Shown here: piece after piece, positions 27,784-39,080 of the stretch | Layout: each line of letters starts with the position of its first letter | Position numbering within the stretch: position 1 is the first letter of the stretch | Assembly: GCA_020052935.1 (NCBI GenBank) | Contig: JAGVOD010000037.1 | Span: 1-39,080 of the forward strand | Origin: an archaeon | GTDB lineage: Archaea; Nanobdellota; Nanobdellia; Woesearchaeales; UBA11576 | Reading direction: 5' to 3' | Length of the DNA: 39,080 nt | The notes under the pieces: generated by a model | The model's database searches: none | Told to the model about the DNA's origin: nothing | The model's input: the letters and a program-made list of their open reading frames with translations, nothing else | Program-made: the position numbers and the translations under genes

Positions 27784-29727
27784 CTATTCGCTCTCTTCAG
27801 CAGTCTCTCCGACCCTGATGTCTGTCACGTCCTTGATCCTCTTGAGCTTCTCTACTATCTTATCGAGCTCTGCCTTGTCCTGTGTATCTATCTTGAATGT
27901 AAGCATTATCTTCCTCTTCCTTATCCGGGTGTTCACTGACTTGACGCTGACTTTCTCGACGGCGAGGAGGTTGAGAAGGTCTGCGAGTATGCCCGGCCTC
28001 TCGGTGACGTACACCCTGAGCTTCCTTATGTTGAGCTCTTCCGGGACCAGCCAGCTCAGCTTGACCTGTTTCGCGTTTTCGAGCGCGTGTATGTTGACGC
28101 ATCCGACCTTATGGACAGTTATCTTGCCGTCTTTTGTGTAGAAACCGACGATAGGGTCTCCTATCTTTATCTCGCAGCAGCCAGAAAGCTTTATCGGCGC
28201 CTTCTTGCCTTCGGCGGTGAGGTAATTCACGAGAGGCTGCTTCAGCCCTTCTTCCTCTTCTTCCTTGTGCACTATCCTGTGCTCTACCTCTATGCCTAGT
28301 GCCGCCCGTATCTTGCTCTTGGCTTTCGCTGTTATGGCAAAGTTGAGCCAGTTCCTTGATGGGTGGGAATTGTTCTGCGTGACTATCTCGACGACGTCTC
28401 CGCTGTTTAAGTGGTAGTCGAGCGGCACGATGGCATCATTGACTTTTGCCTTGGAGCAGTGGTTGCCTATGCCCGTATGCACTGCGTAGGCGAAATCCAC
28501 AGGTGTCGCGCCTTCTGGGAGAGATATGGGGTCTCCTTTCGGCGTGAGCGCTATTATCTCGTTCTCGAAGAGGTCTATCTTGAGCGTCTCGACGAATTCT
28601 TTTGCGTTCTTTGACTTGCGCAGCCACTCAAGTATCTGCCTGAGCCACATTATCCTTCTGTCAAACGCGGCGTCCTTCTCTGTGCCTTTGTATTTCCAGT
28701 GCGCGGCTATTCCCTCTTCAGCTATGGAATGCATCTCCTGCGTCCTTATCTGGATCTCTATTATCTTGTTCTTGTATTTTGTCGACGTGTGTATGGACTG
28801 GTAGCCGTTCGCTTTCGGATGCTGGATGTAGTCCTTGAACCTGTCGAGCTGTGGCTCGAACAGCGTGTGCACTATCTCGAGGGCCTTGTAGCAGTCAGGT
28901 ATGGTGTCAACTATTATCCTTATCGCAAGCAGGTCGTATATCTGGTCGAAGTCCTTGCCTTTCTCCATCATCTTCTTGTAGATTGAGTAGAAATACTTGG
29001 CACGGCCGGTGACCTCTGATTCGATATCTTTATCCTTGAGGGAGGTCTGTATCATCTCGACAATTTGTGCTGTTACCTTCTCCCTCTCTGCCCTCTTCTC
29101 GGCGATGGCTTCCTTGAGCTTTACGTACATGTCGTAGTCTATGTAGCGCAGGGACAGGTCTTCCAACTCGCCTTTTATCCTCCACATGCCGAACTTGTGC
29201 GCGATTGGTGCGTATATCTCCAGGGTCTCCTGCGCGATCCTTTTGCGCTTATCTGAGCGGAACGTAGCGAGGGTCCTCATGTTGTGCAGCCTGTCCGCGA
29301 GCCTTATGAGTATCACACGCACGTCTTTTGTCGTCGCTAGGAATATCTTCCTGAGGTTCTCTGCCTTGTAATCTTCTTTTGTGTTGAACCACTGGCCTGT
29401 GATCTTTGTCAGGCCTTCGACAATGTGCGCGACTTCGTCGCCGAATTCCTTCCTCACGATATCTAGTGATGTGCTTGTGTCTTCCACTGTGTCGTGCAGC
29501 AGCGCAGCGCATATCGTGGCCGTGTCTGCCTTCAGCTGTATCAGTATCCTCGCGACTTCTGATGGATGGACAAAGAATTCTTCTCCTGCTGCCCTTTTCT
29601 GGCCTTTGTGCGCCTGATCCGCGAAGCGGTAGGCTTTCGCTATCTTGTCCATGTCTGCGTGGGGGTTGTGTGTCGCCACGAGCGCCATGAACTCTTCGAA
29701 CGTTATCGGCTTGGACTCGAACGCCAT
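27784..29727 (-). CDS. bifunctional (p)ppGpp synthetase/hydrolase, long RelA/SpoT homologue
   Basis: 647 residues from the ATG at 29727, chosen because a TATA box (CATATAAATG on this strand, near 29750) lies about 25 bases upstream; an ATG eight codons earlier lies inside that TATA box. Order: HD hydrolase domain (FVHPSEVA, ALLHDTVEDT, RLADRLHNMRTL), synthetase domain (RAKYFYSIYKKM, DLLAIRIIV, RFKDYIQHPKANGYQSIHTS, IEIQIRTQEMHSIAEEG), TGS domain (ALTPKGDPISLPEGATPVDF), a CC...C zinc-finger-like segment and a C-terminal ACT domain. The RFKD motif is the bifunctional type rather than the EXDD of RelA. Both active sites look intact. Such complete enzymes are bacterial in origin and rare in archaea, so horizontal transfer is likely. 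Confidence 0.95.
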   Translation of the reverse strand: MAFESKPITFEEFMALVATHNPHADMDKIAKAYRFADQAHKGQKRAAGEEFFVHPSEVARILIQLKADTATICAALLHDTVEDTSTSLDIVRKEFGDEVAHIVEGLTKITGQWFNTKEDYKAENLRKIFLATTKDVRVILIRLADRLHNMRTLATFRSDKRKRIAQETLEIYAPIAHKFGMWRIKGELEDLSLRYIDYDMYVKLKEAIAEKRAEREKVTAQIVEMIQTSLKDKDIESEVTGRAKYFYSIYKKMMEKGKDFDQIYDLLAIRIIVDTIPDCYKALEIVHTLFEPQLDRFKDYIQHPKANGYQSIHTSTKYKNKIIEIQIRTQEMHSIAEEGIAAHWKYKGTEKDAAFDRRIMWLRQILEWLRKSKNAKEFVETLKIDLFENEIIALTPKGDPISLPEGATPVDFAYAVHTGIGNHCSKAKVNDAIVPLDYHLNSGDVVEIVTQNNSHPSRNWLNFAITAKAKSKIRAALGIEVEHRIVHKEEEEEGLKQPLVNYLTAEGKKAPIKLSGCCEIKIGDPIVGFYTKDGKITVHKVGCVNIHALENAKQVKLSWLVPEELNIRKLRVYVTERPGILADLLNLLAVEKVSVKSVNTRIRKRKIMLTFKIDTQDKAELDKIVEKLKRIKDVTDIRVGETAEESE

Positions 29728-29748
29728 AAAACACACATACAAAAACAA

Positions 29749-29760
29749 CATTTATATGCT
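29749..29760 (-). promoter_or_regulatory. TATA box of the RelA/SpoT gene
   Basis: AGCATATAAATG on the minus strand ends about 22 bases before the ATG at 29727, so the message is probably leaderless. It lies between the gene and element A4. Confidence 0.6.
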
Positions 29761-35139: not shown

Positions 35140-35146
35140 TGGAATA

Positions 35147-35235
35147 AATGCATTTTGCCGACGAAGTCGGAAAAATTGGTTTTTAAATGCTCGAAAATCC
35201 CGATGAGTTTACGAGTCGAGATTTTCTTTGCATTA
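35147..35235 (+). repeat. post-tRNA double-hairpin module C1
   Basis: Hairpin one is ATTTTGCCGA with TCGGAAAAAT; then TTTTTAAATGCTC; hairpin two is GAAAATCCCGA/TCGAGATTTTC around TGAGTTTACGAG; an outer AATGC/GCATT clamp closes it. The same frame follows the other three tRNA genes. It could act as a terminator because the second stem ends in a T-rich run. Confidence 0.7.
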
Positions 35236-35251
35236 AATATTTTCCAAAATC

Positions 35252-35322
35252 GCGTCAGTAGTTGAATGGTACAATTCGGCCTTGCCAAGGCTGGGGCCCG
35301 GGTTCGATTCCCGGCTGACGCA
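35252..35322 (+). tRNA. tRNA-Gly(GCC)
   Basis: The acceptor GCGTCAG/CTGACGC, the D arm GTTG/CAAT, the anticodon stem CGGCC/GGCTG around TTGCCAA (anticodon GCC) and the T arm CCGGG-TTCGATT-CCCGG are all complete. The discriminator is A and there is no intron. The last 12 bases are repeated at 35478-35489. Confidence 0.95.
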
Positions 35323-35332
35323 TTCAAGAAGA

Positions 35333-35427
35333 CAATTTTGCCAGACGAGTTTACGAGTCGGCAAAATTGGATTTTAAATGTTCAATAATCCCAGACGAAC
35401 GAAGTGAGTCGGGATTATTTTTACATT
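35333..35427 (+). repeat. post-tRNA double-hairpin module C2
   Basis: Hairpin one is CAATTTTGCC/GGCAAAATTG around AGACGAGTTTACGAGTC; then ATTTTAAATGTTC; hairpin two is AATAATCCC/GGGATTATT around AGACGAACGAAGTGAGTC. Two more small hairpins follow (CAGAC/GTCTG and AAAACCC/GGGTTTT, about 35442-35473) before the repeated tRNA end. Confidence 0.7.
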
Positions 35428-35477
35428 ACGCAGTAATGCGGCAGACTGGTCTGAAAACCCAGAAGGGTTTTCTTTAT

Positions 35478-35489
35478 CCGGCTGACGCA
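35478..35489 (+). repeat. duplicated 3' end of tRNA-Gly
   Basis: CCGGCTGACGCA repeats the last 12 bases of tRNA-Gly (35311-35322) in direct orientation, 155 bases downstream of that gene's end. Only hairpin DNA lies between. This resembles the attL/attR duplication left when an element enters a tRNA 3' end. Confidence 0.65.
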
Positions 35490-35546
35490 TACTTCTTTTA
35501 TCATACTGCGCATAGTTTTTTAAACACTCCTCCCAGTTCTTCTGCC

Positions 35547-36629: not shown

Positions 36630-36727
36630 AATCTTGAATCAGAAACGAGAAAAGGGGCAAAACTTAAAATACCATACGTTGCGGAACCCAGCATAATGAT
36701 ACATATCCAAATCCGCCCAACGCAAAC

Positions 36728-36737
36728 TTTTATAAAC
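36728..36737 (+). promoter_or_regulatory. TATA box upstream of tRNA-Ile
   Basis: CTTTTATAAACACC lies about 30 bases before the tRNA 5' end at 36766, the standard archaeal distance to a start at or just before the tRNA. Confidence 0.6.
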
Positions 36738-36796
36738 ACCCCACTTTCTCCTTAAAACCTGCCTCGAGCCCGTAGCTTAGCCTGGTGCTAAAAGCG

Positions 36797-36825
36797 CTTA
36801 TCTCGCTTGCGCGGGAAATGGAGCG
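36797..36825 (+). other. putative intron 1 of tRNA-Ile (position about 26/27)
   Basis: 29 bases must be removed to join the D stem to the anticodon stem. The segment folds as TCTCGC-TTGC-GCGGGA and is bordered by AGCG on both sides, so the exact cut can slide. A full BHB motif is not evident; it would be a relaxed one. Confidence 0.5.
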
Positions 36826-36836
36826 CCGGTCTTATA

Positions 36837-36862
36837 TGGCCGCGTTTCGTACAGCTTAAGAG
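36837..36862 (+). other. intron 2 of tRNA-Ile (canonical 37/38 position)
   Basis: A complete BHB motif: stem CCGGT/ACCGG, four-pair helix CTTA/TAAG, three-base bulges TAT and AGA, and inner stem GGC/GCT. Cutting after the second base of each bulge joins CTTATA to A and gives a seven-base anticodon loop. Confidence 0.8.
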
Positions 36863-36885
36863 AACCGGTGGTGCCGGGTTCAAAT

Positions 36886-36981
36886 ATTGGCGCCCGAAGC
36901 GACAATGTTTTGAAAATGTGCGAACATTTTCAAAGCCAGGAAATCGTAGGTTTCCTATGCTTCGAACGTCAGTGAGAAAGT
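36886..36981 (+). other. putative intron 3 of tRNA-Ile (T loop)
   Basis: About 96 bases separate TTCAAAT from CCCGG. ATTGGCG/CGTCAGT and CGAAGC/GCTTCG stems lead to two hairpins (TGAAAATGT/ACATTTTCA and AGGAAA/TTTCCT). TTCA/TGAG could form the four-pair helix, as in tRNA-Glu, but the 3' bulge would be five bases, so the motif is relaxed. The twin hairpins recall the modules that follow tRNAs. Confidence 0.6.
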
Positions 36982-37002
36982 CCCGGCGGGCTCATGCGAG
37001 AA

Positions 37003-37101
37003 AGGCATTTTGCCGATGACCTTTGGGAGTCGGCCAAAATGCCTTTTCACATGCTCAATAATCCCAGACGAGCTTCGGCGAGTCGGGATTATTTTTGCAT
37101 G
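37003..37101 (+). repeat. post-tRNA double-hairpin module C3
   Basis: Hairpin one is GGCATTTTGCCGA/TCGGCCAAAATGCC; then TTTTCACATGCTC; hairpin two is AATAATCCC/GGGATTATT around AGACGAGCTTCGGCGAGTC, then TTTGCATGC. It begins 9 bases after tRNA-Ile. Confidence 0.7.
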
Positions 37102-37207
37102 CTTAATGATTAAAAACAGTTTGGTAGGAACTCGTTGTCAGCTATCTTGCAACACAGTGGTTTACCGGGTTCCTGTCAAACTTCATTTTCATCGCCGCTA
37201 CAACGAT

Positions 37208-37311
37208 GCTCCTGTAGTGTAGTCTGGCCAATCATACGGCACTTTCGATGCCGCGACCCGGGTTCAAAAAAGCTCGACGTGAAGTCCGCTTTGAGTGTCC
37301 CGGCGGGAGCA
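37208..37311 (+). tRNA. tRNA-Glu(UUC) with a T-loop intron
   Basis: The acceptor GCTCCTG/CGGGAGC (one G-U or mismatch tolerated), anticodon stem CGGCA/TGCCG around CTTTCGA (anticodon TTC), and T arm CCGGG-TTCAAA|T-CCCGG are clear once a 29-base intron is removed. The discriminator is A. No good TATA box is seen immediately upstream, so it may be co-transcribed with tRNA-Ile. Its last 14 bases recur 75 bases downstream. Confidence 0.9.
37269..37297 (+). other. tRNA-Glu intron in the T loop (position 59/60)
   Basis: A textbook BHB motif: T stem CCGGG/CCCGG, four-pair helix TTCA/TGAG, bulges AAA and TGT, inner stem AAGC/GCTT. Cutting AA^A and TG^T restores the loop TTCAAAT. The T loop is a rare intron position. 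Confidence 0.85.
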
Positions 37312-37371
37312 TAGCTTTCGAAAACAGTGCGACCGGCGGGGCCAGCGGATTTGCAGAGCAAATCTCAGCGT

Positions 37372-37386
37372 GTCCCGGCGGGAGCA
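37372..37386 (+). repeat. duplicated 3' end of tRNA-Glu
   Basis: GTCCCGGCGGGAGCA repeats the bases at 37297-37311 in direct orientation. About 60 bases lie between, including the GATTTGC/GCAAATC hairpin. TGAG is absent in front of this copy, so it could not form the BHB and is unlikely to be an alternative exon. Confidence 0.7.
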
Positions 37387-37395
37387 TGAAATAAA

Positions 37396-37540
37396 ACAAA
37401 AATCCCGATGAGTTTACGAGTCGGGATTTTTGGTTTTTACATGCTTAACAATCCCGATGAGCTTCAAGACGCGAAGCGGCTTGAAGGCTTACAGCGCCGA
37501 AGGCGCTGAAAGAGTTACGAGTCGGGATTGTTCTTGCATT
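37396..37540 (+). repeat. post-tRNA double-hairpin module C4 with nested hairpins
   Basis: Hairpin one is CAAAAATCCCGA/TCGGGATTTTTG; then GTTTTTACATGCTTA; hairpin two is CAATCCCGA/TCGGGATTG, whose loop holds two further hairpins, CTTCAAG/CTTGAAG and CAGCGCC/GGCGCTG. It follows the second tRNA-Glu 3' end by 9 bases. Confidence 0.7.
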
Positions 37541-37620
37541 TATGATCAACAATTTCCGTCGACAAAAAAAACAATCAGGAGGTTTATGTAACGGTTATCG
37601 ACGGCCGTGAAGTGAAAAAA

Positions 37621-38051: not shown

Positions 38052-39080
<1,029 letters not shown>

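What the first reader, a model, noticed from the sequence alone, without database searches (positions are those of the whole stretch)
36766..36994. tRNA-Ile(UAU) gene apparently split by three introns
One tRNA of normal size is spread over 229 bases. The anticodon-loop intron has a complete BHB; an insert after the D stem and a 96-base insert in the T loop are required to restore consensus arms. Multiple-intron tRNA genes are known mainly in Thermoproteales and a few other archaea. The T-loop intron carries twin hairpins resembling the C modules, so module insertion may have become an intron.
Basis: partly seen in the sequence, partly recalled or inferred. Interest (0 to 1): 0.75.

Follow-up and report, generated by a model that had tools for sequence, protein, structure and literature searches.

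The report
Three-intron isoleucine tRNA in a DPANN archaeon
One tRNA gene of a tiny, uncultured archaeon is cut by three removable inserts, and one of them belongs to a population of T-loop introns, not reported in the literature I could search, that has spread through the tRNA genes of a whole order and hides those genes from a standard tRNA finder.

Summary
In detail: window 36766-36994 (+) is a single-copy tRNA-Ile(UAU) whose 74-nt mature form is a full cloverleaf once three inserts are removed. Orthologues lacking two inserts correct one detail: the first lies in the D-loop (19/20), not after the D stem. The others are at 37/38 and 59/60 (T-loop, 96 nt). Each forms, or nearly forms, a bulge-helix-bulge (BHB) motif. 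Two congeners share the D intron and also carry T-loop introns, synteny with tRNA-Glu(UUC) is kept, and TiaS is absent, so the gene is probably functional and needed for AUA decoding.

The wider result is larger. T-loop introns mark the order (Woesearchaeales-like): 161 pattern hits in 100 genomes against 5 for the reversed pattern. The intron base opposite exon position 57 co-varies (A-T or G-C in 67/78 and 66/82). One intron family sits in Ile, Ser, Gln and His tRNAs, and related copies repeat within single genomes. The window's T intron is a 44-nt family core plus a 52-nt twin-hairpin insertion. Only an alpha-type EndA is found, no beta subunit. The link to intergenic 'C modules' is not supported. 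Splicing itself is inferred; no RNA data were available.

The parts
36727..36737 (+). TATA-box-like promoter element CTTTTATAAAC, 29 bases before the tRNA 5' end
   Evidence: Sequence. Similar TTTATAAA elements precede some orthologues. Function inferred.
36766..36785 (+). Exon 1 of tRNA-Ile(UAU): acceptor 5' strand to G19
   Evidence: 100% exon match as a separate block; aligned to uninterrupted orthologues.
36786..36818 (+). Intron 1, D-loop position 19/20, 33 nt (TGCTAAAAGCGCTTATCTCGCTTGCGCGGGAAA)
   Evidence: Absent in G005/G012/G030/G031. Present and alignable in G001/G002. H5 GCCT: H3 GGGA (3 of 4 pairs; 4 of 4 in the six other orthologues with a 19/20 intron), B5 GG^T, B3 AA^T.
36819..36836 (+). 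Exon 2: rest of D arm, anticodon stem 5' strand, anticodon TAT (36833-36835), A37
36837..36862 (+). Intron 2, canonical position 37/38, 26 nt
   Evidence: Full BHB: H5 CTTA: H3 TAAG, bulges TA^T and AG^A. In orthologues 51 of 64 pair 4/4 and 12 pair 3/4.
36863..36884 (+). Exon 3: anticodon stem 3' strand, variable loop, T stem 5' strand, T54-A59
36885..36980 (+). Intron 3, T-loop position 59/60, 96 nt
   Evidence: Bulges AA^T and AG^T, H5 TTCA: H3 AGAA (3 of 4 pairs), outer helix = T stem; whole precursor T arm folds as one extended stem, -50.6 kcal/mol.
36885..36907 (+). 5' part of the 44-nt intron-family core (TATTGGCGCCCGAAGCGACAATG)
   Evidence: Homologous T introns in G001 Ser(GGA) and Ile(GAU); family alignment and covariation.
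36908..36959 (+). 52-nt twin-hairpin insertion inside the intron core, ATG at both ends
   Evidence: Absent from the homologous introns of the same family; two hairpins in the fold. Insertion and target duplication inferred.
36960..36980 (+). 3' part of the intron-family core (CTTCGAACGTCAGTGAGAAAG)
   Evidence: Part of the block 36957-36980 that is 100% identical to the T intron at G001:C74.
36981..36994 (+). Exon 4: T60, T stem 3' strand, acceptor 3' strand, discriminator A
37208..37311 (+). Neighbouring tRNA-Glu(UUC) with a 29-nt T-loop (59/60) intron at 37269-37297
   Evidence: H5 TTCA: H3 TGAG, bulges AA^A and TG^T (sequence; coordinates). Uninterrupted Glu(UUC) follows Ile(UAU) in G012 and G030. 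The 3' exon is repeated at 37373.

Best explanation
This is a functional, single-copy tRNA-Ile(UAU) gene that decodes AUA in an archaeon without TiaS. Its precursor carries three protein-spliced (BHB) introns at 19/20, 37/38 and 59/60. Most likely steps: transcription from the upstream TATA element; excision of each intron by the alpha-type splicing endonuclease EndA at BHB motifs that use the D stem, anticodon stem and T stem as outer helices; then ligation (presumably by RtcB, not examined). The T-loop intron belongs to a population of 59/60 introns that is widespread in the order and moves between tRNA genes, plausibly by recombination or gene conversion through the near-invariant GGTTCRAA / T-stem exon sequence or by reverse splicing. 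Turnover at this site is fast: the three congeners carry three different T introns behind one shared D intron. Shown by sequence: exon structure, positions, motifs, covariation, intron families, single EndA. Inferred: splicing, mobility route, function.
For: The joined exons form a standard tRNA-Ile(tat). Orthologues lacking introns 1 and 3 give the same mature sequence plan. Two congeners share the D intron and have T introns with perfect motifs, such as the 18-nt ATGCATGATGCACGAAAG. In 22 T introns not selected for this motif all have at least 3 of 4 H pairs, mean 3.64 against 1.69 shuffled. Position 57 co-varies with the intron base opposite: 44 A-T + 23 G-C of 78, Fisher p = 7e-13; 50 + 16 of 82 further hits, p = 5e-10. 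T-loop pattern: 78 hits vs 4 reversed in 39 genomes, 161 vs 5 in 100 genomes (summed by hand). Removing the insert lets ARAGORN call a tRNA in 27 of 30 loci, and in 14 of 18 others, where 0 of 18 are called unspliced. The TATTG intron family occurs in Ile(UAU), Ile(GAU), Ser, Gln(CUG) and His(GUG) tRNAs with 97.9% of helix cells paired and compensatory changes. Near-identical or clearly related T introns repeat 3-5 times in single genomes. TiaS is absent in own and 9 relatives. No other Ile(UAU) copy found. EndA has a complete catalytic domain and alpha architecture, and no beta subunit is found.
Against: No RNA evidence. In the window gene itself both non-canonical motifs carry one mismatch (D: G15.A; T: A57.A), and the T intron lacks an inner helix directly next to the bulge. 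Published work states that alpha4 EndA handles only canonical introns (PMC4033280), so cleavage of the two imperfect motifs is not assured. The genome is 85% complete, so a second Ile(UAU) or a missing EndA subunit cannot be wholly excluded.
Confidence: 0.9

Rival explanations
1. Pseudogene: the gene has been inactivated by insertions and AUA is decoded by something else.
For: Two of the three motifs carry one mismatch, and the region is full of partial tRNA repeats.
Against: The stems pair after joining. The same three-intron layout is kept in two congeners and synteny with Glu(UUC) is conserved. TiaS is absent and no second copy was found.
Confidence: 0.05
2. The T-loop insert is not removed: the mature tRNA keeps an extended T arm.
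For: Precursor T arm plus intron folds as one long stable stem, -50.6 kcal/mol.
Against: Conserved AA^N / AG^T bulges and strong 57:intron covariation are what a BHB needs, not a longer arm. Insert length varies from 15 to 139 nt among orthologues, and orthologues without insert have a normal 7-nt T loop.
Confidence: 0.03
3. Gene built from separately transcribed halves (split or trans-spliced), the inserts being leader and trailer remnants.
For: DPANN includes Nanoarchaeum with split tRNAs, and partial tRNA ends lie nearby.
Against: All exons are in order on one strand within 229 nt, with a promoter-like element only upstream. No separate half was found by exon search of the genome.
Confidence: 0.02
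4. Intergenic hairpin modules inserted into the tRNA and became the T-loop intron.
For: The intron does hold two hairpins, and a 52-nt block is extra relative to homologous introns.
Against: No sequence similarity to the window's intergenic hairpins (score 18; 97% of shuffles as high). No second copy of the block in the genome. The intron core exists without the block in other tRNAs.
Confidence: 0.05

Closest known systems
Multiple-intron tRNA genes of Thermoproteales (Pyrobaculum, Caldivirga), with large-scale intron transposition (Sugahara 2008, Fujishima 2010, as cited in PMC4033280)
   Same: Up to three BHB introns per tRNA at non-canonical positions; similar introns in different tRNA species.
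   Different: Different group (DPANN order); one site, the T-loop 59/60, is used very widely here; EndA is alpha-only here, whereas non-canonical introns were tied to (alpha-beta)2, epsilon2 or specific-loop alpha2 enzymes.
Intron-rich tRNAs of Asgard Atabeyarchaeia and Freyarchaeia (PMC11291895)
   Same: Many tRNA genes with several introns, often at non-canonical positions.
   Different: Unrelated lineage; the passages read give no T-loop families and no endonuclease type.
tRNA-Ile(UAU) of Nanoarchaeum equitans and Korarchaeum cryptofilum (PMC6000648)
   Same: A UAU anticodon as the route to AUA decoding; the Korarchaeum copy has one intron.
   Different: Here three introns, and the tRNA type is widespread in DPANN (68 contigs with an exact 20-base match), against 2 of 167 archaeal genomes in that survey.
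tRNA splicing endonuclease: M. jannaschii alpha4 (1a79) and N. equitans alpha subunit (3iey_A)
   Same: Own EndA aligns almost gap-free with 1a79 and has the catalytic Y/H/K residues; best hit is 3iey_A.
   Different: No beta subunit as in N. equitans was found; subunit assembly untested.

Membership tests
Functional archaeal tRNA gene, tRNA-Ile(UAU) | Complete cloverleaf with UAU anticodon after intron removal | tested here: met
   ARAGORN Ile(tat), all four arms
Functional archaeal tRNA gene, tRNA-Ile(UAU) | Conserved across related genomes in the same gene neighbourhood | tested here: met
   Congeners G001 and G002 and more distant G012 and G030; Glu(UUC) downstream
Functional archaeal tRNA gene, tRNA-Ile(UAU) | Mature tRNA is produced | not testable with these tools
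   No RNA data
Archaeal BHB intron (37/38) | 4-bp central helix, two 3-nt bulges, outer and inner helices | tested here: met
   CTTA:TAAG, TA^T, AG^A, GGC:GCT inner helix (inner helix by inspection)
Archaeal BHB intron (59/60) | 4-bp central helix, two 3-nt bulges, outer and inner helices | tested here: inconclusive
   Own copy: 3 of 4 central pairs, bulges fit, inner helix not adjacent. The intron class as a whole meets it with covariation.
Archaeal BHB intron (19/20) | 4-bp central helix, two 3-nt bulges, outer and inner helices | tested here: inconclusive
   Own copy 3 of 4 pairs; six orthologues 4 of 4
Transposed tRNA intron family (Thermoproteales type) | Similar intron sequence in different tRNA species | tested here: met
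   TATTG family in Ile(UAU), Ile(GAU), Ser, Gln and His tRNAs
Broad-specificity EndA system ((alpha-beta)2, epsilon2 or loop-bearing alpha2) | Second subunit, or extra specific loop in EndA | tested here: not met
   One PF01974 gene in each of 39 genomes; no beta found with the order's EndA profile or a beta family; nearly gap-free against 1a79
Split (trans-spliced) tRNA | Halves at separate loci | tested here: not met
   All exons contiguous in order within 229 nt

The most novel reading that the evidence does not exclude
An entire DPANN order (Woesearchaeales-like) carries a large, mobile population of tRNA introns specialised for one site, the T-loop 59/60. They are spliced by an alpha-only EndA because they rebuild a full BHB on the T stem, and they spread between tRNA isotypes through the near-invariant T-arm sequence. 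This would separate intron position from endonuclease type and explain many apparently missing tRNAs in DPANN genomes.
Probability: 0.6. Interest if true: 0.75.

Novelty: new variant of a known kind. Interest (0 to 1): 0.62.

Why it matters
It extends massive tRNA intron gain from Thermoproteales and some Asgard archaea to a DPANN order. It is a test case against the rule that non-canonical introns need a broad-specificity endonuclease, since only an alpha-type EndA is found. It gives a practical warning: T-loop introns hide tRNA genes from ordinary finders, so tRNA-based completeness and codon-decoding inferences for these genomes may be biased. The sharp base covariation and the repeated intron families make the route of intron spread testable.

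Tried and rejected
Position of the first insert 'after the D stem' (25/26), allowed by an AGCGC direct repeat: rejected because uninterrupted orthologues place it in the D-loop. Derivation of the T-intron hairpins from the window's intergenic hairpins: rejected. A BHB that would use the duplicated 3' exon of Glu(UUC) at 37373: none seen by inspection. EndA beta subunit: looked for with PF01974, an alignment of the order's EndA and NF007085; only the alpha gene and noise. Several literature searches found no report of T-loop introns in Woesearchaeota, but the library lacks most subscription papers, including the key Thermoproteales ones.

Full report
What is there. The window is contig C34 of a 1.64-Mb, 85%-complete genome. 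The organism belongs with the Candidatus Woesearchaeota / Nanoarchaeia MAGs that carry the same tRNA, and an archaeal 16S gene starts at 38052. Bases 36766-36994 (+) hold four exons that join to a 74-nt tRNA-Ile(UAU) with a full cloverleaf. Unspliced, neither ARAGORN nor the Rfam tRNA model reports it.

Positions of the inserts. Orthologues in G005, G012, G030 and G031 have only the 37/38 intron, so they define the mature sequence. They show that the first insert lies between G19 and T20 in the D-loop, with the D stem as outer helix, and not after the D stem. The third insert lies between positions 59 and 60 of the T-loop. Because T is repeated at both ends of the D insert, its exact register could shift by one base without changing the mature tRNA.

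Motifs. The 37/38 intron has a perfect BHB (CTTA:TAAG, bulges TA^T and AG^A); in 64 distinct orthologues 51 pair 4/4 and 12 pair 3/4. The D intron pairs GCCT with GGGA (3 of 4), whereas the six orthologues with introns at the same site pair 4/4. The T intron pairs TTCA with AGAA (3 of 4). Among 22 T-loop introns found in tRNA-Ile(UAU) orthologues, a set not selected for this motif, the mean is 3.64 of 4 against 1.69 in shuffles.

The T-loop class. The pattern GGTTCRAAN{8,38}GAAAGTCC has 78 hits in 39 related genomes against 4 for the reversed pattern. It has 161 against 5 in 100 genomes of the phylum; by my count of the table, 46 of 74 genomes of the own order are positive and 6 of 26 in other orders of the class. 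These counts are lower bounds for the class, because the pattern fixes part of the motif and a short length. Position 57 of the exon is G or A, and the intron base opposite follows it: 44 A-T and 23 G-C of 78 (Fisher p = 7e-13), and 50 and 16 of 82 hits from further genomes (p = 5e-10). Related genomes are not independent, so the p-values are only indicative. When the insert is removed in silico, ARAGORN calls a tRNA ending in the right place in 27 of 30 loci. In a second set, 14 of 18 are recovered spliced and 0 of 18 unspliced; some of the anticodons it names are implausible because further introns remain. Own Tyr(GUA), Val(CAC) and Glu(UUC) also have T-loop introns. Outside the order, tRNA-Ile(UAU) T-loop introns also occur in contigs titled Micrarchaeota and Aenigmatarchaeota.

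Intron families and turnover. The ends of the window's T intron match introns in two other tRNAs of the congener G001: Ile(GAU) and a disrupted Ser(GGA). Relatives of this TATTG family sit in Ser, Gln(CUG) and His(GUG) tRNAs of other families. On an alignment of nine members, 97.9% of the cells of the proposed helices are paired, nine pairs change on both sides, and sliding the partners drops pairing to 37-47%; five of those pairs are in the intron helix and four in the T stem. Compared with these 44-nt cores, the window's intron has 52 extra bases forming two hairpins with ATG at both ends: an insertion into an existing intron. The three congeners have three different T introns (18 nt; 97 nt of another family; the 96-nt one here), while their D introns are orthologous. 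Related T introns recur in single genomes: four listed copies in G077, five in G080, three in G050. This is the pattern described as intron transposition in Thermoproteales (PMC4033280). The route (gene conversion through the conserved T arm, or reverse splicing) is not shown.

Function. TiaS, which lets a CAU tRNA read AUA, is absent from the own genome and nine relatives, while it is found in control archaea. No second Ile(UAU) was found. The gene is therefore probably needed. The pseudogene reading is disfavoured.

Splicing enzyme. Every one of 39 genomes has exactly one PF01974 gene. The own protein has both EndA domains, conserved Tyr/His/Lys residues, best solved relatives 3iey_A and 1a79, and an almost gap-free alignment with the latter. 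Neither an alignment of the order's EndA nor a beta-subunit family finds a partner. An alpha4 enzyme is inferred. Reviews tie non-canonical introns to other enzyme types. Here the positions are non-canonical but the motif of the class is close to the strict one, which would let an alpha4 enzyme act. The window gene's two mismatched motifs remain a weak point.

Novelty. Multi-intron tRNA genes are known from Thermoproteales, some Thaumarchaeota and Asgard archaea, so the kind is known. New, as far as the held literature shows, are the order, the very wide use of one T-loop site, the association with alpha-only EndA, and the wide use of tRNA-Ile(UAU), which an earlier survey found in 2 of 167 archaeal genomes (PMC6000648).

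Noticed in passing
window 35322-35490, 37298-37386; L012, L015, L018, L019 (own genome): Six of 21 own tRNA genes checked have a 12-17-nt copy of their 3' end 58-197 bases downstream, and Ser(UGA) also has a 17-nt copy of its 5' end upstream. At Leu(UAA) and Ile(GAU) the spacers look alike (AGCGTGC...GGCACTGG...GTTCCTG), like tiny integrated elements using the tRNA end as target.
   Followed up: partly
L137 (G001:C74:700-1700, minus strand): An intact tRNA-Ser(GGA) gene lies between the parts of another, intron-rich tRNA-Ser(GGA) in the same orientation, flanked by a 14-bp inverted repeat: a tRNA nested in what looks like an intron of a tRNA.
   Followed up: partly
L028 and L030 (downstream of Ile(UAU)), L137 upstream part: Tandem copies of tRNA 5' ends (GCTCCCGTGGTGTA.., GCCGCCGTGGCATACTC..) precede the real Glu and Ser genes in G001 and G005.
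   Followed up: no
window 35140-35252, 35322-35440, 36994-37140, 37386-37560: Each of four tRNA genes is followed by cassettes of hairpins of the type AATCCC(A)GACGA..GAGTCGGGATTATTTTT, possibly terminators or small repeats.
   Followed up: partly
L041: In a Micrarchaeota tRNA-Ile(UAU) the D-loop and T-loop introns share sequence (GCCCTTTCTTTTCTGTG..CAGACAAAGAAA) with each other and partly with the 3' flank: introns of one family at two sites of one gene.
   Followed up: no
L018 (own genome, G000:C9:13332-13436): tRNA-Leu(CAG) appears to carry a roughly 21-nt D-loop insert.
   Followed up: no
G000:C72 around 14401: An open frame of 4117 aa was reported at a noise match: possibly a giant surface protein.
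   Followed up: no
window 27784-29751 (-): A 655-aa ORF reads like a bacterial-type RelA/SpoT (p)ppGpp enzyme, unusual for an archaeon; recognised by eye only.
   Followed up: no
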